DNA of 37,637 bases from Alphaproteobacteria bacterium (GTDB taxonomy: Bacteria; Pseudomonadota; Alphaproteobacteria; Rs-D84): NCBI GenBank assembly GCA_009782315.1, contig WRJH01000003.1:1-37637 (forward strand). Direction: 5' to 3'. The number at the start of each line of letters is the position of its first letter. Position 1 is the stretch's first letter. The notes beneath the pieces are model-generated. The model saw only the letters and a program-made list of their open reading frames with translations. It did not search any database and had not been told where the DNA came from. Shown here one piece after another: positions 343 through 31,467 of the stretch. Made by a program: the position numbers and the translations under genes.

Positions 343-882
343 TTATTTACGTCTGCGAATCCAATGAAAAACATATAAAGCAACGCCTATGCAAATAAAA
401 ATATCGGCGAAATTAAATGCCGGCCAATGATACCCCGCGTAATGAAAGTCCAAAAAGTCTATCACGGCGCCGAATCGTATGCGGTCTACCAGATTTCCAA
501 CGGCGCCGCCGATGATAAGGGCAAGCGATATGCGTTCCAACCGGCCGGGCGCGCGCAAAAGGACATGTCCGAAAAACCCGATGATTGCGGCGGTGATTAC
601 GACGATTGCAACCGGCGCCGCTTCGCCCAATGCACGGAACAAAGAAAACGACGTTCCTGGATTCCAAGTGAAAACAATATTGAAAAAATTGGTCACGCGC
701 GCCATCAGATAGGGATATGGAACCAGATTGAACGCCCGCCCGAACGCCGGCACGGAACCGGTCAAGAGATACAAAATATATCCCTTTGCAATCTGGTCGA
801 CAAGGACCAACACAAGGCATAAGGCACAAGGCATAAGGCATATGCGTTTTGTATTTGCCATAATTTTTTTCAACGACTTCAT
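343..882 (-). CDS. lspA: Lipoprotein signal peptidase (signal peptidase II)
   Basis: This integral inner-membrane aspartyl protease cuts signal peptides from diacylglyceryl-modified prolipoproteins. The 179-aa product has the family hallmarks: VDQIAKG after the first membrane helix, NPGTSFS, GGAVGNLVDRIRFG with the first catalytic Asp (D133), and FNFADIFICIG with the second (D160); the 27-residue spacing matches E. coli LspA. The start at 882 has an AGGA box six bases upstream. Residues about 14-25 of TM1 are encoded by a 7-bp repeat array (811-843), so this helix is partly built from repeat DNA. It follows tig by 56 bp and is probably cotranscribed with it. Its likely substrate in this window is the MliC-like lipoprotein. 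Confidence 0.97.
   Translation of the reverse strand: MKSLKKIMANTKRICLMPCALCLVLVLVDQIAKGYILYLLTGSVPAFGRAFNLVPYPYLMARVTNFFNIVFTWNPGTSFSLFRALGEAAPVAIVVITAAIIGFFGHVLLRAPGRLERISLALIIGGAVGNLVDRIRFGAVIDFLDFHYAGYHWPAFNFADIFICIGVALYVFHWIRRRK
811..843. repeat. Heptamer array, CATAAGG type, in lspA
   Basis: Four tandem units of CACAAGG/CATAAGG lie inside lspA and encode hydrophobic residues of TM1 (ICLMPCALCL). The array is inverted relative to the one at 919-949, making an inverted pair across the tig-lspA junction. Confidence 0.85.
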
Positions 883-918
883 ACCTTGTCCTTTATGTGC
901 GACATTTCGACAATTTTT

Positions 919-949
919 TATGCCTTATGCCCTATGCCTTATGCCTTAA
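919..949. repeat. Heptamer array, CATAAGG type, at tig stop
   Basis: About four units of TATGCCT/TATGCCC fill the tig-lspA gap. On the minus strand the tig stop codon TAA is part of the first unit (AAGGCATAA). Confidence 0.85.
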
Positions 950-16883: not shown

Positions 16884-16911
16884 AAACGCCGCTTTCGCGG
16901 CGTTTTTTTTA
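16884..16911. terminator. Terminator after rpmH
   Basis: Stem AACGCCGC-TTTC-GCGGCGTT followed by eight T residues, with A residues on the left, so it can also serve the minus-strand gene that ends at 16909. Confidence 0.92.
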
Positions 16912-17097
16912 CATGTACAATCGCATTACATACAAATGGGGCAGTTTTTTCGGAATATATTTTCCGGATTCAAAATCCCGATATTCGGCCAATTTAATTC
17001 TTAACCATTTGGCCATCTGTTCTTCTGATAATCTGGCGGACATGCGAATTTGTCGCACCCTGTCCCCGATTACGTTTGGGTAACTTTTGCCTTTCAT
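16909..17097 (-). CDS. Small XRE-type helix-turn-helix protein, 62 aa
   Basis: The 62-aa product (IGDRVRQIRMSARLSEEQMAKWL, then YRDFESGKYIPKKL) has the five-helix pattern of lambda-repressor-like HTH domains: a start of the IG.R.R..R form, the turn LSEEQMAKWL, and a following .F..G...P. It is a bare DNA-binding domain with no sensor part. GGAG lies six bases before the ATG at 17097. The gene lies just behind the structured RNA at 17113-17293 on the same strand, so read-through past the RNA terminator could express it. Whether the two work together is unknown. Confidence 0.8.
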   Translation of the reverse strand: MKGKSYPNVIGDRVRQIRMSARLSEEQMAKWLRIKLAEYRDFESGKYIPKKLPHLYVMRLYM

Positions 17098-17112: not shown

Positions 17113-17144
17113 GATAAAAAAATACCGCCGTGACGAAGAGCGGT
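17113..17144 (-). terminator. Terminator of the structured RNA R1
   Basis: On the minus strand ACCGC pairs with GCGGT (17140-17144 with 17124-17128), followed by seven T residues. The upstream arm overlaps the CTCCCAACC tail of the RNA, so the two helices compete. Confidence 0.7.
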
Positions 17145-17293
17145 TGGGAGTTAAAAGCTATACAGGTATAGTACGCATATTCGGCGGCAAGCCGCCTTAT
17201 TTTGCGTCTCCCAACCTGGTTGGGAGTTTTTATACTGATGACTATCAGCAACCTGCGAGACTTTTAACTCTCACCCTGGGTGTCACCCAAGGC
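17113..17293 (-). ncRNA. Structured RNA R1, unknown family, about 180 nt
   Basis: The minus strand carries a TTGCAT-N16-TATAAT promoter, then a structured stretch without a coding frame, then a terminator. GAGTTAAAAG (17261-17270, read in reverse) pairs with CTTTTAACTC (17148-17157) as a closing helix. Inside lie hairpins CTGAT-AGTC-ATCAG, a 9-bp stem CTCCCAACC/GGTTGGGAG (17226-17208), and GGCGGC-TT-GCCGCC nested in ACGCA/TGCGT. CTCCCAACC occurs again at 17150-17142, so GGTTGGGAG has two perfect partners: a mutually exclusive switch. RNA R2 (21854-21990) repeats this layout with different sequence. I could not match it to tmRNA, RNase P RNA, SRP RNA or T-box; a 6S-like RNA is not excluded. 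Confidence 0.65.
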
Positions 17294-17299
17294 ATAACC

Positions 17300-17327
17300 A
17301 TTATACAATGTAATCATGGAAATGCAA
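17300..17327 (-). promoter_or_regulatory. Promoter of structured RNA R1
   Basis: TTGCAT (17322-17327), 16 bp, TATAAT (17300-17305) on the minus strand, lying just after the terminator of the upstream operon. Confidence 0.72.
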
Positions 17328-20503: not shown

Positions 20504-20976
20504 AAATCAATTCCTTGCAATTCAGGCGGCAGTTCGGTGATGGCATGCCAAACCTGGGTCCGACCAAACGGCCCGACTTTGCCGCGTACGCGAAGCAGCG
20601 ACGCATCGTCCTTGTCCTGCCAAATTACGGAAGAATAGACGCTGCCCGACTGGGGGTCCATGATTTTTCCGCCGATATATTCCGTTCCATCCCATTTCAT
20701 GTCCCAGATGATTTCCAGACCGGACATTTTCGGCGCGCCTTTTACTTTTTCGGCGATTTTGACGGGTGCTTTGATTGTTTCGGAAATTTCGCCGGTATCG
20801 GCATCAAACAAAGCTACAATTCGCCCGCACAAGCGGTCTTCGCATTCGTGCAATTGGACGATTGATTTCGGCGCGTTCGTCTTGTCGTCTATGGTTTTGT
20901 AAAACCCGGTATGCGGGGCGGCATGCACACCCAAGGCATAGGGCATAAGGCATAGGGCATAAATTACTTTTTTCAT
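20500..20976 (-). CDS. Exported DUF2147 protein
   Basis: The 158-aa product has a signal peptide (MKKVIYALCLMPYALGVHA) and a mature part typical of DUF2147: GFYKTIDDKTNAPKSIVQL, the G-R-I-V strand, and WDMKWDGTEYIGGKIMDP with YSSVIW. These are small periplasmic beta-barrel-like proteins of unknown function. The hydrophobic core of the signal peptide is written by a CATAAGG/CATAGGG heptamer array. AAAGGA lies nine bases before the ATG. It leads an operon with valS (4-bp overlap) and the thioesterase, behind the promoter at 21017-21045. Confidence 0.88.
   Translation of the reverse strand: MKKVIYALCLMPYALGVHAAPHTGFYKTIDDKTNAPKSIVQLHECEDRLCGRIVALFDADTGEISETIKAPVKIAEKVKGAPKMSGLEIIWDMKWDGTEYIGGKIMDPQSGSVYSSVIWQDKDDASLLRVRGKVGPFGRTQVWHAITELPPELQGIDL
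20932..20962. repeat. Heptamer array, CATAAGG type, in DUF2147 signal peptide
   Basis: Four units of CATAGGG/CATAAGG encode YALCLMPYAL. Inverted relative to the array at 21065-21103; the promoter of the operon lies between the two. Confidence 0.87.
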
Positions 20977-21064: not shown

Positions 21065-21103
21065 TCTATGCCTTATGCCTTATGCCCTATGCCCTATGCC
21101 CTA
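21065..21103. repeat. Heptamer array, CATAAGG type, at comF stop
   Basis: Five units; the comF stop TAG is part of the first unit (TTTAGGG, minus strand). Confidence 0.87.
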
Positions 21104-21841
21104 AATCGCCCGCACGACTCTGCAAAATACGACGCCGTATACCCGCTTTGCGCCGGCGCGTTTCAAAACGCGGCGCAATTCATAAAATGTGGCGCCGGTT
21201 GTCATGACGTCGTCGACCAACAGGATTGTTTTGCCTTTGATTTCATCCGGGCGGCGAACTTTGAACACTCCGCGGATATTTGCCCTGCGTTCTTTGGCGT
21301 TTTTATGCCCCATGTCTTTTCGGTGGGCTCGCCGGACGGAATCGACGTCCATCGGAACGGCGAAATGTTTCGCGATGGGCCGGGCCAAAAGGGCCGCCTG
21401 GTTGTATCCGCGTTTGAACAATCGCCGGTATGAAAGCGGCACCGGCATGATTAAATCGAACGGCGGAACATCCCCCTTCGCGCATTGCGCTTTGGGGGAC
21501 AGGTCGCGCAGCGAATTAATCATCGCACGCGCCATAAGATTGCGGTATTTCAGCGCGGCCGCATGCTTGAACGGCAACATGACACCCTTTGAAGCGTCGT
21601 CGTAAACGCAAGAGCTTCGCATAAAATCGACAACGTTTTTGCCGGACGCGCACGTGGGGCAAAGCGGCCGCGAACCCAAATCGATATTCGCCGGAAAAGG
21701 ATAGCCGCAAACAAAGCATTTCGGGTCGGAAATCCAGTTGAATTCGGCCCAGCATTTTGCGCACAAAACGCCGTCTTCGGTACCGACGGTTTTACAAACC
21801 GGACAAGACGGCGGGAAAAGAAAATCCAGGATAAATTTCAC
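21101..21841 (-). CDS. comF: ComF-family amidophosphoribosyltransferase-like protein
   Basis: ComF proteins have an N-terminal zinc ribbon and a phosphoribosyltransferase domain, and are linked to DNA uptake or damage tolerance in some bacteria. The 246-aa product shows two Cys pairs at the N-terminus (CPVCK, CAKCW), two more in a second ribbon (CFVCG, CPTCA), GYNQAALLARPIA, and the PRPP loop ILLVDDVMTTGAT. The start is a GTG at 21841 with AAAGG seven bases upstream. A palindromic element (21472-21499) adds SPKAQCAKGDVPP in frame between the halves. Structured RNA R2 ends about 12 bp before the start codon, so ComF expression may depend on read-through of R2. Confidence 0.93.
   Translation of the reverse strand: MKFILDFLFPPSCPVCKTVGTEDGVLCAKCWAEFNWISDPKCFVCGYPFPANIDLGSRPLCPTCASGKNVVDFMRSSCVYDDASKGVMLPFKHAAALKYRNLMARAMINSLRDLSPKAQCAKGDVPPFDLIMPVPLSYRRLFKRGYNQAALLARPIAKHFAVPMDVDSVRRAHRKDMGHKNAKERRANIRGVFKVRRPDEIKGKTILLVDDVMTTGATFYELRRVLKRAGAKRVYGVVFCRVVRAI
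21472..21499. repeat. CCCCCTTCG palindrome inside comF
   Basis: CCCCC...GGGGG arms enclose a CGCGCATTGCGC-type inner hairpin; translated in frame as SPKAQCAKGDVPP. Similar insertions lie in uvrD and in the gene at 26528-28834. Confidence 0.7.
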
Positions 21842-21853
21842 AAAGCCGCCTTT

Positions 21854-21990
21854 GAAAAAGACGGCAGGAGGTCGAAAACTATGCTAGGCAATAGTATGAC
21901 TTATTCAATATATTCAGTCACCCTCCTGCCTGGTGGACAGGAGCATTGCTCATAAGAACAGCCTAGTGAGTTTTTCGAAACTCTATGCTG
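21854..21990 (-). ncRNA. Structured RNA R2, same architecture as R1, about 136 nt
   Basis: A TTGTTT-N17-TATAAT promoter precedes a non-coding stretch that ends in GTCTTTTTC. CGAAAAACT...CTAGGC pairs with GCCTAG...AGTTTTCG as the closing helix. GGCAGGAGG (21930-21922) can pair upstream with CTCCTGTCC (21944-21936, partly) or downstream with CCTCCTGCC (21871-21863, nine perfect pairs); the second choice makes the terminator. GTGACT/AGTCAT forms the inner stem and TACTAT...ATAG the last small hairpin, at the positions seen in R1. Sequence identity with R1 is low while pairing is kept, which supports a real structured RNA. It lies just upstream of comF on the same strand, so it could be a leader or an independent RNA. 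Confidence 0.65.
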
Positions 21991-21995
21991 AATGC

Positions 21996-22024
21996 ATTAT
22001 AGGATACAACTCAAAGGGAAACAA
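21996..22024 (-). promoter_or_regulatory. Promoter of structured RNA R2
   Basis: TTGTTT (22019-22024), 17 bp, TATAAT (21996-22001) on the minus strand. Confidence 0.65.
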
Positions 22025-22071
22025 GGAAAATTTCCAAATAAACCGGGTAAAATTGATTCAAGTGGTGTGAT

Positions 22072-22142
22072 TGGAAATAAAAATTATATTTTTTAATGGG
22101 GAGTGTACTTATATGTACATGACCTATTAAAAAATATAATTT
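22072..22142 (-). terminator. Long AT-rich palindrome, probable terminator of the OmpA-like gene
   Basis: Two perfect 17-bp arms (22081-22097 and 22126-22142) enclose a core AGTGTAC-TTATAT-GTACATGA. On the minus strand the stem is followed by TTTTTATTT, as in an intrinsic terminator, 32 bp after the stop codon at 22174. The core resembles the palindrome at 11895-11951. From 22025 to 22071 I see nothing else. Confidence 0.6.
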
Positions 22143-22173
22143 CTTATGACCAGGCGCGCCGCATCAATCGATT

Positions 22174-23433
22174 TTACCACGAAAGGCTTCTTTGCGTGCG
22201 GGTTGATACCGTATCGCCGAAAATATCGCGCTGTTTTTCGACCAGCGTCTGGAAACTGTCGGTCGAAATGACGCGCAGGACGAACGCGTCGCTTTCGCGC
22301 CCGGACAGGACCGGCATAATCTTGTTGTCGGAAACGTTCGAATCTTTCAATGCTTGTTCCACAATGGCCAGGCGGCGCGCGGCCAGGCGGCGGCCATCGA
22401 TGTTTTGGACGGACCTTTCTGGAATGGAAATCTGAATCGCGCGTTTCGGATTTCTGACCACCAGTCCCGCGAAATCGGACAACAGTTGGAAATTGTCGCG
22501 CGACAGCGCGGCATCGTCGCCGCGGAATCCAATCCGTATTTCCAGCGGCCGGGGCAGTTCCTGTTCGGTCAAATCCCGGGCCGAATCGAACCCTTGCATT
22601 TCGACGGACATATCGCTGGCGACATCGAACCGGTCGTCGATTTTATACGTCGACAGGTGCTTGTTTTCGGAAATATATGTTTTCTGGAAAGCGCGGCGCA
22701 ACTGCATCGGGGACAGTTTGTTTAACGGAACATCGTCGTTGTCCGTTGTCCGTTGTCCGTTGTCCGTAACGGCGGCAATTACACTATCGTCATTTACCTT
22801 GTACCCTTTGAAATCATCGAACGGAATTTCCACGCGGGCAAAGGCGATGTCGTTGTTTTCAATCGGCGCCGGCACAAATTCGGGCACGGATGCGGCAACG
22901 TCCGGCGACGGTTTGATTGTCGGCTGGAATGAAATGGCGGGCGCTGGGACGATTGCCGGTACGGAAACCTTTCGTGCGAACAACCTTTCTTCGGGCAACT
23001 CGAAATCATCGGGAAATTCAATCATTGGGCGCGCGGGCACGGGAATTATTTCGGCGGACGGTGCGGGCGCATGGGCGGCGGCGATTGGAACGGGGACGGC
23101 CGCGCCACGTGCTAGCCACGGCGCGTCGTTATTGGCTGCGCGCGCCCACAGATTGTCGTTCGGACGGCGCGGGGTTAAAATATCCGTTGAATTGTTTTCG
23201 GCGGCAACGGGTGCGGGGACTGGTGTTACGGGAACCGCGGCGCGCGCTATAACCCTGGGCGCCCTTTGCGCAACCGGCGCGGGCGCGGGTTTTGGCGGCA
23301 TGCCGAACGCTTCGCGCGCGGACACCATGTGGCCGGGATTGACGGCGGGCAATGCGGCCGACGCAAACGCATCGTGTAAAAAACCGAACGATACGAACGC
23401 CAATGCGCAAAGATAAACCCTTGACGATATCAA
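22174..23433 (-). CDS. Exported Pro/Ala-rich protein with OmpA-like C-terminal domain
   Basis: The 419-aa product starts at a TTG with AAGGAAGG upstream and opens with a signal peptide (VYLCALAFVSFGFLHDAFA). Residues about 45-215 are a Pro/Ala/Val-rich, probably extended linker. The C-terminal part (about 260-410) includes LEIRIGFRGDDAALS and GRRLAARRLAIVEQALKDS followed by NKIMPVLSGRESDAFVLRV, which resembles the OmpA/MotB peptidoglycan-binding fold; the match is partial. A tether between envelope and peptidoglycan is the natural guess. A GTTGTCC heptamer array inserts NGQRTTDN in frame. It appears to be a single-gene unit with promoter 23454-23483. Confidence 0.7.
   Translation of the reverse strand: MISSRVYLCALAFVSFGFLHDAFASAALPAVNPGHMVSAREAFGMPPKPAPAPVAQRAPRVIARAAVPVTPVPAPVAAENNSTDILTPRRPNDNLWARAANNDAPWLARGAAVPVPIAAAHAPAPSAEIIPVPARPMIEFPDDFELPEERLFARKVSVPAIVPAPAISFQPTIKPSPDVAASVPEFVPAPIENNDIAFARVEIPFDDFKGYKVNDDSVIAAVTDNGQRTTDNDDVPLNKLSPMQLRRAFQKTYISENKHLSTYKIDDRFDVASDMSVEMQGFDSARDLTEQELPRPLEIRIGFRGDDAALSRDNFQLLSDFAGLVVRNPKRAIQISIPERSVQNIDGRRLAARRLAIVEQALKDSNVSDNKIMPVLSGRESDAFVLRVISTDSFQTLVEKQRDIFGDTVSTRTQRSLSW
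22737..22768. repeat. Heptamer array, GTTGTCC type, in OmpA-like gene
   Basis: Four units of GTTGTCC are read in frame as DNGQRTTDND on the minus strand. Confidence 0.85.
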
Positions 23434-24285: not shown

Positions 24286-26409
24286 ATGAATCACCAGCCA
24301 CCAGCCACCAGCTACAAATCACGATTAAATCCCGAACAATTGTGCGCCGTGGAAACGACGGACGGTCCGGTTTTGGTTCTGTCCGGCGCGGGTACGGGAA
24401 AGACATCCGTTCTTGTCGCGCGCATGGCGCATATCCTGGACCGGAATTTGGCGCGGCCGTGGGAAATCCTGGCCGTGACGTTTACTAACAAGGCTGCGGC
24501 AGAGATGAGGACCCGTGTCGCGGCGCTTGCGCCTACCCCTGAATGGGTCGGCACTTTTCATTCCATTTGCCTTCGTATATTGCGGATTAATTCTGCGGCG
24601 GCGGGACTTGGCAATAATTTCATAGTGCTGGGCGAAGACGGTCAGAAAGCGGTTTTGAAAACCGTGATAACGGCGATGAAACTGGACACCAAAGAATACC
24701 CGCCCGCGGATTGGGTGGAACGCATATCGGCAATAAAGGACAAGGGCCTGGGCGATAACTCCCCCCTTCGGGGGGAAGTCGACGGCAAAGCCGTCGGTGG
24801 GGGGCAAAAAATCTATAACGCGTACAACGCGGAATTGGCGCGGATGAACGCGGTGGATTTCGGCGATTTGATTTTGAAAGTTTTGGAACTGTTCAAAGGC
24901 CGCCCGGACGTGCTGCAAAAATATCAAAAACAATTCAAATATATCATGGTTGATGAATACCAGGATACGAACGCCGCGCAATACCAATTGCTGCGCATGC
25001 TGGCTGCGGCACATAACAATATATGCTGTGTGGGCGATGATGACCAGTCGATATATTCCTGGCGCGGGGCGGATATAAAAAATATTTTGGGATTCGAAAG
25101 CGATTACGCGGACGCAGACGTAATCAGGTTAGAGACGAATTATCGCAGCACGGGAAATATCCTGGGCGCGGCAAACAGCCTGATACGGCATAACACGGAC
25201 CGTCTGGGCAAAAACCTGCGCGCAAGCGATGGCGCGGGCGACGGCGAAAAAATCCGCATCCTGCATCTGCCGACGGATTTCGACGAAGCGCGCCTGACTG
25301 CGGACGCCATCACCGCGTATCCAGCGGGTGAAGTCGCCGTGCTTATCCGCGCCGGTTCGCTGTCCAGATTGTTCGAAGAAGAATTCGCGCGCCGCGGCAT
25401 AGAATACAAACTTGTCGGCGCGACGAAATTTTACGACCGCATGGAAATAAAGGATACGGTCGCGTACTCGAATCTTCTTGCCCACCCGCACGACGATATT
25501 TCGTTCGCGCGGGTCATATCGAAACCGCGCCGCGGATTCGGCGATGTCGCCGTGCAAAAAATCCGGGATTTCGCCGCGGCGAAAAAAATCGGAATGCTGG
25601 CTGCATTGCGCGAAATGCCGCTGTCGGGCGCGCAAAAAAAATCCGCGGACGAATTTTCGGCCGTATTCGATTTTGCATGGGAAAACATGGCGCCTTCTGA
25701 TGCGGTGTCGGAACTGTTGGAAAAATCCGGATATATGAAAATCTGGGCGGAATCCAAAGACGCGGATGCGCCCGAAAGATTGCAAAATGTCCGGGAATTG
25801 ATTTCGAACGTGATTTCAAAATACGATTCTTTGCCGGAATTTTTGGAACATGCCGCGCTGATGATGACGGACACGGGCGATACGGAACCGGATGCTTCCA
25901 GCCGCGGCGCGGTCGCCATAATGACGATTCATGCGGCAAAGGGCCTGGAATTCGACACGGTGTTTCTGCCCGCGTGGGAGGAAGGAATTTTCCCGAACGA
26001 CATAGCTATAAAAGAAGGCGGAATCGAAGAAGAGCGCCGCCTGGCATACGTTGCCATAACGCGCGCAAAACGCCGTGCGATTATAACGCATACGATGTCG
26101 CGCATGCTTTACGGCACAAGACAACCCGGCACCCAAAGCCGGTTTATCGCAGAGATTGATGAAGAATTCATAGGGCATAAGGCACAAGGCATAAGGCATA
26201 ATAATATAAAACCGGCGGAACATTATTCTGAAAAAACAAAACCCATTTGCCCCATGCCTTATGCCTTATGCCCTAATATGGTCGGCAAACTTGTGACTCA
26301 TGCCGAATTGGGCGGCGGCGTGGTTATAGAGGACGGCGGGGAAATACTGACCGTCGCTTTCAAAGACAAGGGCATTAAAAAAATCGCCCGGAAATTTGTG
26401 GGGTTGTGA
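24286..26409 (+). CDS. ATP-dependent 3'-5' DNA helicase, UvrD/PcrA type
   Basis: This superfamily 1A helicase acts in nucleotide excision and mismatch repair. The 707-aa product has the Q-motif LNPEQLCAVETTDG, Walker A SGAGTGKT, motif Ia TFTNKAAAEM, motif II VDEYQDTN, motif III GDDDQSIYSWRGAD, motif IV RLETNYRST, motif V MTIHAAKGLEFDTVF and motif VI RRLAYVAITRAKR. Repeat insertions: a heptamer array gives NHQPPATSY at the N-terminus; a palindrome gives SPLRGEVDGKAVGG (24760-24804); an inverted pair of CATAAGG arrays gives FIGHKAQGIRHNN and PICPMPYALCP ahead of the C-terminal Tudor-like domain. No Shine-Dalgarno is visible. The stop codon lies in another array. uvrD and pcrA cannot be separated here. 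Confidence 0.95.
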   Translation: MNHQPPATSYKSRLNPEQLCAVETTDGPVLVLSGAGTGKTSVLVARMAHILDRNLARPWEILAVTFTNKAAAEMRTRVAALAPTPEWVGTFHSICLRILRINSAAAGLGNNFIVLGEDGQKAVLKTVITAMKLDTKEYPPADWVERISAIKDKGLGDNSPLRGEVDGKAVGGGQKIYNAYNAELARMNAVDFGDLILKVLELFKGRPDVLQKYQKQFKYIMVDEYQDTNAAQYQLLRMLAAAHNNICCVGDDDQSIYSWRGADIKNILGFESDYADADVIRLETNYRSTGNILGAANSLIRHNTDRLGKNLRASDGAGDGEKIRILHLPTDFDEARLTADAITAYPAGEVAVLIRAGSLSRLFEEEFARRGIEYKLVGATKFYDRMEIKDTVAYSNLLAHPHDDISFARVISKPRRGFGDVAVQKIRDFAAAKKIGMLAALREMPLSGAQKKSADEFSAVFDFAWENMAPSDAVSELLEKSGYMKIWAESKDADAPERLQNVRELISNVISKYDSLPEFLEHAALMMTDTGDTEPDASSRGAVAIMTIHAAKGLEFDTVFLPAWEEGIFPNDIAIKEGGIEEERRLAYVAITRAKRRAIITHTMSRMLYGTRQPGTQSRFIAEIDEEFIGHKAQGIRHNNIKPAEHYSEKTKPICPMPYALCPNMVGKLVTHAELGGGVVIEDGGEILTVAFKDKGIKKIARKFVGL
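24290..24319. repeat. Heptamer array, CACCAGC type, at uvrD start
   Basis: Four units of CACCAGC encode HQPPATS right after the uvrD initiator. Mirror image of 24192-24226. Confidence 0.87.
24760..24804. repeat. CCCCCCTTCG double palindrome inside uvrD
   Basis: Two hairpins, CCCCCC-TTC-GGGGGG and GACGGC-AAA-GCCGTC, are translated in frame as SPLRGEVDGKAVGG within the helicase 1B region. Confidence 0.75.
26171..26204. repeat. Heptamer array, CATAAGG type, in uvrD (arm 1)
   Basis: Four units encode GHKAQGIRHNN. Inverted partner at 26250-26278. Confidence 0.87.
26250..26278. repeat. Heptamer array, CATAAGG type, in uvrD (arm 2)
   Basis: Four units encode PMPYALCPN. The 45 bp between the arms (NIKPAEHYSEKT) is coding but not typical UvrD sequence. 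Confidence 0.87.
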
Positions 26410-31060: not shown

Positions 31061-31090
31061 AGGGCATAAGGCACAAGGCATAAGGCATAT
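31061..31090. repeat. Heptamer array, CATAAGG type, upstream of MliC-like gene
   Basis: Four units; inverted relative to the array in the signal peptide (31161-31192), with the MliC-like gene promoter between them. Confidence 0.87.
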
Positions 31091-31097
31091 TTTCCTG

Positions 31098-31126
31098 TTG
31101 TTAATATTTGGATTTTCGATGATAAT
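31098..31126 (+). promoter_or_regulatory. Promoter of the MliC-like lipoprotein gene
   Basis: TTGTTA (31098-31103), 17 bp, GATAAT (31121-31126), 26 bp before the start codon. Confidence 0.5.
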
Positions 31127-31152
31127 TTCACCGTTAACCAAAAGGAAAAAAT

Positions 31153-31467
31153 ATGAAAAAACTTATGCCTTATGCCTTATGCCTTGTGCCTTTATTTCTT
31201 GGCGCCTGCCGGGAAAAGCCGTTGGAAACCATCGACCTGATGTGCGGCGAAGTCCATGTGGACGCGCGCATTTACCGCGATAGAATCGAAGCGAAAATGT
31301 ACGAACAAGACATAGAAATGAAATTGTCGCAGTCGGCCAGCGGCGCCAGATATGCGGGAAGCACAAACGACACCCGTCTGGTTCTTTGGAACAAAGGCGA
31401 AGAATGGCTGCTTTTGTCCGTCACCGGGAACGAAGAAGAAGTCCTGGTCAGTTGCATGAAACAATAA
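31153..31467 (+). CDS. MliC-like lysozyme-inhibitor lipoprotein
   Basis: The 104-aa product has a lipoprotein signal peptide with lipobox LGAC (lipidated Cys19) and a mature domain with the MliC/PliC signature: SASGARYAGS followed by LVLWNKGEEWLLL and a C-terminal Cys (SCMKQ) likely bridged to the Cys in DLMCGE. MliC proteins sit in the outer membrane and block C-type lysozyme, which fits a host-associated life. The SASGARY and KGxE motifs are the residues that contact lysozyme in the family. The h-region of the signal peptide (LMPYALCLVPL) is written by a CATAAGG heptamer array. AAGGA is seven bases upstream of the ATG. Confidence 0.88.
   Translation: MKKLMPYALCLVPLFLGACREKPLETIDLMCGEVHVDARIYRDRIEAKMYEQDIEMKLSQSASGARYAGSTNDTRLVLWNKGEEWLLLSVTGNEEEVLVSCMKQ
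31161..31192. repeat. Heptamer array, CATAAGG type, in MliC-like signal peptide
   Basis: Four units of TTATGCC/TTGTGCC encode LMPYALCLVP in frame. Confidence 0.88.

What the first reader, a model, noticed from the sequence alone, without database searches (positions are those of the whole stretch)
21854..21990. R2: a second RNA with the R1 architecture but different sequence
R2, upstream of comF, shares with R1 the closing helix, a central segment with an upstream and a downstream partner, an inner stem and a last TACTAT...ATAG hairpin before the tail. The pairing bases differ (CTCCCAACC versus CCTCCTGCC) while pairing is kept. Two divergent copies with conserved structure argue for a real RNA family, perhaps two paralogues like 6S-1/6S-2, or leaders of the genes that follow.
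Basis: partly seen in the sequence, partly recalled or inferred. Interest (0 to 1): 0.8.

Follow-up and report, generated by a model that had tools for sequence, protein, structure and literature searches.

The report
Phage C4-type antisense RNA turned attenuator
The two matching RNAs in this gut alphaproteobacterium belong to a large family of gene leaders related to a phage immunity RNA (C4 / sRNA-Xcc1); here they sit, with their own promoter and a built-in stop signal, in front of up to about 55 chromosomal genes per genome and probably switch them on and off.

Summary
R1 and R2 are minus-strand RNAs with one shared, strongly covarying fold. They are not 6S. They belong to a family found in 139/142 genomes of this family of ~1 Mb gut Alphaproteobacteria, with 6 copies here and up to 55 per genome.

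Each copy typically has a -10 box, two pairings of a 5' half with a 3' half (one a pseudoknot), and a three-stem core. In ~90% of copies an intrinsic terminator overlaps the core's last strand, and an ORF starts a median 50 nt later.

The core is a diverged relative of Rfam sRNA-Xcc1 (sub-threshold, but found in both directions). The whole layout matches phage P1 c4: promoter, a1, b1, C4 RNA, a2, b2/SD, antirepressor operon. Phylum-wide relatives and phage copies keep the antisense sites at the SD and lack terminators. The copies here mostly lost those sites and gained the terminator.

Best reading: C4-type antisense modules turned into cis-acting transcription attenuators (SD sequestration before comF and comEC), default off. 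The 5' half favours termination; without it the C4 stem (antiterminator) wins. The trigger is unknown. Downstream genes are small XRE-type HTH proteins, secreted Cys-rich proteins, comF and comEC. New variant of a known kind.

The parts
22019..22024 (-). R2 promoter, -35-like TTGTTT (17-nt spacer to the -10)
   Evidence: read directly; consensus match only
21996..22001 (-). R2 promoter, -10 TATAAT
   Evidence: exact TATAAT lies 75-150 nt upstream of the core in 43% of copies vs 7% of shuffles
21972..21978 (-). R2 a1-like strand (5' side of the closing helix, TCGAAAA)
   Evidence: pairs with 21872-21879; family-wide 71% of copies form >=7 bp with their own partner vs 14% with swapped partners
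21961..21966 (-). R2 b1-like strand (CTAGGC), pairs with the loop of the last hairpin (pseudoknot)
   Evidence: 87% of copies form >=6 bp with their own loop vs 7% with swapped loops, 130 distinct helices
21947..21960 (-). R2 variable hairpin P3
   Evidence: fold
21936..21943 (-). R2 upstream partner of the G-strand (P4 5' strand, CTCCTGTC)
   Evidence: fold
21863..21930 (-). R2 C4-like core: G-strand 21922-21930, stem-loop 21896-21921 with conserved GAATATATTGAATAA, hairpin 21878-21895 with b' loop 21883-21890, a' strand 21872-21879, tail 21863-21871
   Evidence: covariance model 81.8 bits; covariation; RF02221 32 bits, E 8e-4, below gathering
21845..21865 (-). R2 terminator-like / SD-sequestering hairpin overlapping the last 3 nt of the tail; its 3' arm holds the comF SD
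   Evidence: 9 bp, 4 T in the next 8 nt; -12.3 kcal/mol alone
21101..21841 (-). comF (GTG start) directly behind R2
   Evidence: double zinc ribbon and Pribosyltran domains above cut-off
17322..17327 (-). R1 promoter, -35-like TTGCAT
   Evidence: read directly
17300..17305 (-). R1 promoter, -10 TATAAT
   Evidence: read directly
17260..17269 (-). R1 a1-like strand AGTTAAAAGT
   Evidence: fold
17251..17256 (-). R1 b1-like strand GCAGGT
   Evidence: pairs with ACCTGT in the last hairpin's loop
17218..17226 (-). R1 upstream partner of the G-strand, CTCCCAACC
17142..17216 (-). R1 C4-like core
   Evidence: covariance model 38.4 bits, E 2.6e-6 in the genome search
17124..17144 (-). R1 intrinsic terminator hairpin, followed by a T tract at 17113-17123
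   Evidence: 7 bp, 1 mismatch, 7 T in the next 8 nt
16909..17097 (-). 62-aa XRE-like HTH gene behind R1
   Evidence: HTH_31 E 2e-5, 25.3 bits, slightly below cut-off 27; ATG 44 nt after the tail

Best explanation
R2 (and R1) is a leader RNA derived from a phage C4-type antisense RNA module: promoter, a1 and b1 strands, a C4/sRNA-Xcc1-like three-stem core carrying the a' strand and b' loop, then the gene. In the chromosomal copies of this order the antisense target sites at the SD (a2/b2) are mostly gone, and an intrinsic terminator overlaps the 3' strand of the core's main stem. At comF and comEC a hairpin next to the start codon takes that place. Proposed working: the nascent 5' half pairs with a' and b' and with the G-strand, leaving the tail free to form the terminator or SD hairpin (off). 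When the 5' half is displaced, bound by something, or removed (C4 precursors are cut by RNase P at that point), the G-strand pairs with the tail, the C4 stem acts as antiterminator and the gene is read (on). Shown: the pairings, their covariation, the mutual exclusion, the position before genes, the phage relatives. Inferred: the direction of switching and the cis action. Unknown: the trigger.
For: Covariation of core, a1/a' and b1/b' pairing. Terminator overlapping the tail in 90% of 210 copies vs 4.4% of shuffles, but in 1 of 60 of the RF02221/C4-type relatives. Full leader: terminator state more stable in 95% of 186 copies (median 9.7 kcal/mol); without the 5' half the C4 stem is more stable in 96%. 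ORF a median 50 nt after the tail, IQR 46-53. Homology in both directions: RF02221 finds these genomes at up to 50.4 bits, E 2e-8, and overlaps many copies; the model built here finds sRNA-Xcc1 members, and its single phylum-wide hit, G297:C4:930275, is an RF02221 member of 71.8 bits. Phage P1 is annotated promoter, a1, b1, C4, a2, b2, icd, ant, matched by RF01695 and c4-a1b1 RF03163. Viral contig L220 (Rha gene) and contig L197 (Bro-N) carry this order's core type plus SD-flanking copies of a1/b1 sequence and no terminator: transitional forms.
Against: R2 scores below the RF02221 gathering threshold (32 vs 53 bits) and R1 gives no RF02221 match at E<=5. No expression or structure data. About 14% of copies have no ORF within 115 nt, and tandem copies without a gene between them exist. 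R2's terminator has only four Ts in the next 8 nt. The thermodynamic comparison ignores the pseudoknot and co-transcriptional kinetics. RNase P processing is carried over from C4 literature and not tested here.
Confidence: 0.7

Rival explanations
1. A small-molecule riboswitch: the core or its conserved GAATATATTGAATAA loop binds a metabolite or second messenger that sets the terminator.
For: Attenuator design, near-invariant loop, many copies per genome before secreted, regulatory and competence genes, tandem copies.
Against: Relatives are antisense RNAs, and the invariant loop corresponds to the second stem of sRNA-Xcc1. GGDEF proteins are absent from G000, G014, G035, G102 and G005, so c-di-GMP made by the cell is excluded as a general ligand. 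No metabolic theme in the regulated genes.
Confidence: 0.15
2. Free-standing trans-acting antisense sRNAs, as for C4 in lysogens: the terminator ends the sRNA, RNase P matures it, and a'/b' silence mRNAs elsewhere; the gene behind is expressed only by read-through.
For: Published descriptions of C4, sRNA-Xcc1 and the C4-like sRNAs of Acinetobacter (PMC5320573; PMC2864571); own promoter and terminator; some copies lack a nearby gene.
Against: ORF at a tightly fixed distance in 86% of copies. a'/b' of ~210 copies show no complementarity to their own SD region beyond that of other copies. R2's bipartite target TCGAAAA-N3-25-CTAGGC occurs in this genome only in R2 itself, and the 5' strands that mask a'/b' are kept.
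Confidence: 0.25
3. 6S-like RNA paralogues.
For: Two structured copies with a closing helix and inner stems.
Against: No RF00013 match; 6 to 55 copies per genome at gene starts with terminators; the fold is C4-like.
Confidence: 0.01

Closest known systems
C4 antisense RNA of phages P1/P7 (Rfam RF01695) with c4-a1b1 (RF03163)
   Same: Order promoter-a1-b1-C4 core-gene; a' strand and b' loop each complementary to upstream strands; three-stem core.
   Different: No RF01695 match to these copies; no a2/b2 at the SD in the chromosomal copies; an intrinsic terminator instead; chromosomal, many copies, other target genes.
sRNA-Xcc1 (Rfam RF02221)
   Same: Same three-stem core and flanking a1/b1 logic; reciprocal covariance-model hits.
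   Different: R2 is sub-threshold. RF02221 members precede symE and phage antirepressor genes (Bro-N, KilA-N, P22_AR_N, Rha), keep SD-complementary sites (67% vs 22% swapped) and lack terminators (1/60).
C4-like Group 1 sRNAs of Acinetobacter baumannii (PMC5320573)
   Same: Multi-copy chromosomal expansion of C4-type RNAs with variable a' region.
   Different: Described as processed sRNAs; the terminator-attenuator placement before ORFs described here is not reported in the passages read.
Multi-copy second-messenger riboswitches (e.g. GEMM; own knowledge)
   Same: Many leaders per genome before secreted and competence genes, with terminator platform.
   Different: No sequence or fold relation; no GGDEF in five of the genomes checked.

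Membership tests
sRNA-Xcc1 (RF02221) | Score at or above the gathering threshold of 53 bits | tested here: not met
   R2 32 bits, R1 no match; best in related genomes 50.4 bits
sRNA-Xcc1 (RF02221) | Three-stem core: long closing stem, stem 2 with an AAUA-type internal loop, stem 3 | tested here: met
C4 antisense RNA (RF01695 / clan CL00128) | Covariance-model match | tested here: not met
   no RF01695 match to R1, R2, L006 or L285
C4 antisense RNA | Upstream a1 and b1 strands complementary to a' and b' | tested here: met
C4 antisense RNA | a2/b2 target sites around the SD of the following gene | tested here: not met
   own SD no better than other copies; present in the transitional loci L220 and L197
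C4 antisense RNA | RNase P processing at the 5' end of the core | not testable with these tools
   core starts with GG in most copies; no RNA data
Riboswitch (any class) | Known aptamer in Rfam | tested here: not met
Riboswitch (any class) | Ligand binding | not testable with these tools
   no binding data
6S RNA (RF00013) | Covariance-model match | tested here: not met

The most novel reading that the evidence does not exclude
A phage immunity antisense RNA was domesticated and spread into a genome-wide, cis-acting transcription-attenuation system (up to 55 leaders in a 1-Mb genome) that co-ordinates competence, secreted Cys-rich proteins and small HTH regulators, triggered by displacement or RNase P removal of the 5' half: a mode of control not described for C4-type RNAs in the papers read.
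Probability: 0.4. Interest if true: 0.8.

Novelty: new variant of a known kind. Interest (0 to 1): 0.62.

Why it matters
It suggests that Rfam's sRNA-Xcc1, C4 and c4-a1b1 describe pieces of one widespread leader architecture, and that RF02221 'sRNAs' often sit in front of SymE or phage antirepressor genes with an SD-masking partner. It also shows a lineage where the module was refitted with a terminator and multiplied across the chromosome, giving reduced gut bacteria a shared control for surface proteins, small regulators and DNA-uptake genes. The two-state fold is directly testable in vitro.

Tried and rejected
Plus-strand reading of R2: folds but scores only 22.8 bits against 81.8 on minus. 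6S: no match. Swapped internal-loop strands in R1: dropped once sRNA-Xcc1 members showed the same order with an inner helix. c-di-GMP: GGDEF absent from five genomes of the family with many copies, though present in two of other families. Conserved synteny with comF or comEC: only in this genome. Bipartite trans targets of R2: none besides itself. Alignment A2 contained a mistyped flank and was discarded; A3 was used. A first wide-window helix search was too permissive and was replaced. The sRNA-Xcc1 paper PMC3256417 is not held.

Full report
Observation. R2 and R1 lie on the minus strand. Both have a -10 TATAAT (21996-22001; 17300-17305) and the same order of elements. R2 folds 3.8 and R1 6.4 standard deviations below shuffles.

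Family. DNA search of 60 relatives found copies in 21 genomes. A covariance model of the core (19 sequences, R1 not among them) shows 98.6% paired cells and 11 of 19 pairs with double changes. The model finds copies in 139 of 142 genomes of the family and 173 of 190 in the order sample, mostly the same family but also in other families of the order. Copy numbers are 6 in this genome, 24 and 55 in two others. Named hosts are gut, rumen and termite Alphaproteobacteria such as Candidatus Enterousia. In a phylum-wide sample only 1 of 150 genomes matches.

Anatomy. Using each copy's own strands, the closing helix a1/a' reaches 7 bp in 71% of copies versus 14% when partners are swapped. The pseudoknot b1/b' (5' strand with the loop of the last hairpin) reaches 6 bp in 87% versus 7%, with 130 different helices. 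The stem-2 loop GAATATATTGAATAA is the main conserved sequence. A terminator hairpin overlapping the tail by 3-4 nt follows in 90% versus 4.4% of shuffles; in R2 its 3' arm contains the comF SD. The ORF starts a median 50 nt after the tail.

Regulated genes. Of 169 distinct ORFs, 81 have a secretion-like N-terminus (64 of those Cys-rich; crude hydropathy rule) and 72 of the other 88 are at most 100 aa, many of them XRE-like HTH proteins. In this genome comF and comEC (PF03772, E 4e-52) carry copies. Close relatives' comF and comEC do not, so copies come and go.

Relatives. Rfam has no match above threshold, but sRNA-Xcc1 appears at 32 bits on R2. Searching related genomes with RF02221 gives up to 50.4 bits, E 2e-8, and overlaps many of our copies. 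RF02221 is above threshold in 39 of 398 genomes of the phylum. Those members have the same flanks. Many precede SymE and Bro-N, KilA-N, P22_AR_N or Rha antirepressor genes, and in phages Aaphi23 and Rac-SA53 they lie directly before ant. In 58 such loci the b' loop pairs with the gene's SD region in 67% versus 22% swapped, and the a' strand in 59% versus 25%. That is the layout of phage P1 c4: a1, b1, C4, a2, b2 at the icd SD (C4 biology from PMC5320573). The model built here finds RF02221 members in return, and its one phylum-wide hit is an RF02221 member.

What differs here. Chromosomal copies of this order show no SD complementarity beyond chance, but have the terminator, which only 1 of 60 relatives has. 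Two loci, viral contig L220 (Rha) and L197 (Bro-N), combine this order's core with SD-flanking copies of a1/b1 sequence and no terminator: a likely path from phage to chromosome.

Mechanism. With the full leader, the terminator state is more stable in 95% of 186 copies by a median 9.7 kcal/mol; without the 5' half the C4 stem wins in 96%. So the 5' half is the predicted switch arm and the default is off. What moves it is unknown: RNA partner, RNase P, or ligand. R2's bipartite target is found nowhere else in the genome, which speaks for cis action.

Verdict. Real, explained as a diverged C4/sRNA-Xcc1-type leader, formally below both Rfam thresholds, with a new platform and an unusual expansion. 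Direction of regulation and trigger remain inference.

Noticed in passing
window 22046-22178: A 133-nt nearly perfect inverted repeat (-65 kcal/mol, z -12.5) starts at the stop codon of the gene ending at 22174 and lies between it and the R2 promoter; it may be a bidirectional terminator or a MITE-like insert. The same site in G004 has a different short palindrome.
   Followed up: partly
window 830-945, 20935-20960, 21068-21100, 26188-26272, 31077-31183: ATGCCYTATGCC-type 7-nt tandem units occur 17 times (0.01 expected), in inverted pairs around gene ends, also read into N-termini as MPYALCLMP.
   Followed up: no
L078 1346-1794, L079 751-1634, L137 2806-3045, L195, L196 267-511: Tandem copies of the leader roughly 170-560 bp apart, some with no ORF between them.
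   Followed up: partly
L283-L292 and L294-L297 (G035, G102, G005, G052): A second, more sRNA-Xcc1-like leader subfamily in the same genomes (up to 50.4 bits to RF02221), mostly not found by the core model and not catalogued here.
   Followed up: partly
L371 4231-4312 (phage P1): Rfam isrK (RF01394) matches the a1/b1 region of P1 c4 (35 bits, below threshold), suggesting isrK is the upstream half of the same kind of module.
   Followed up: no
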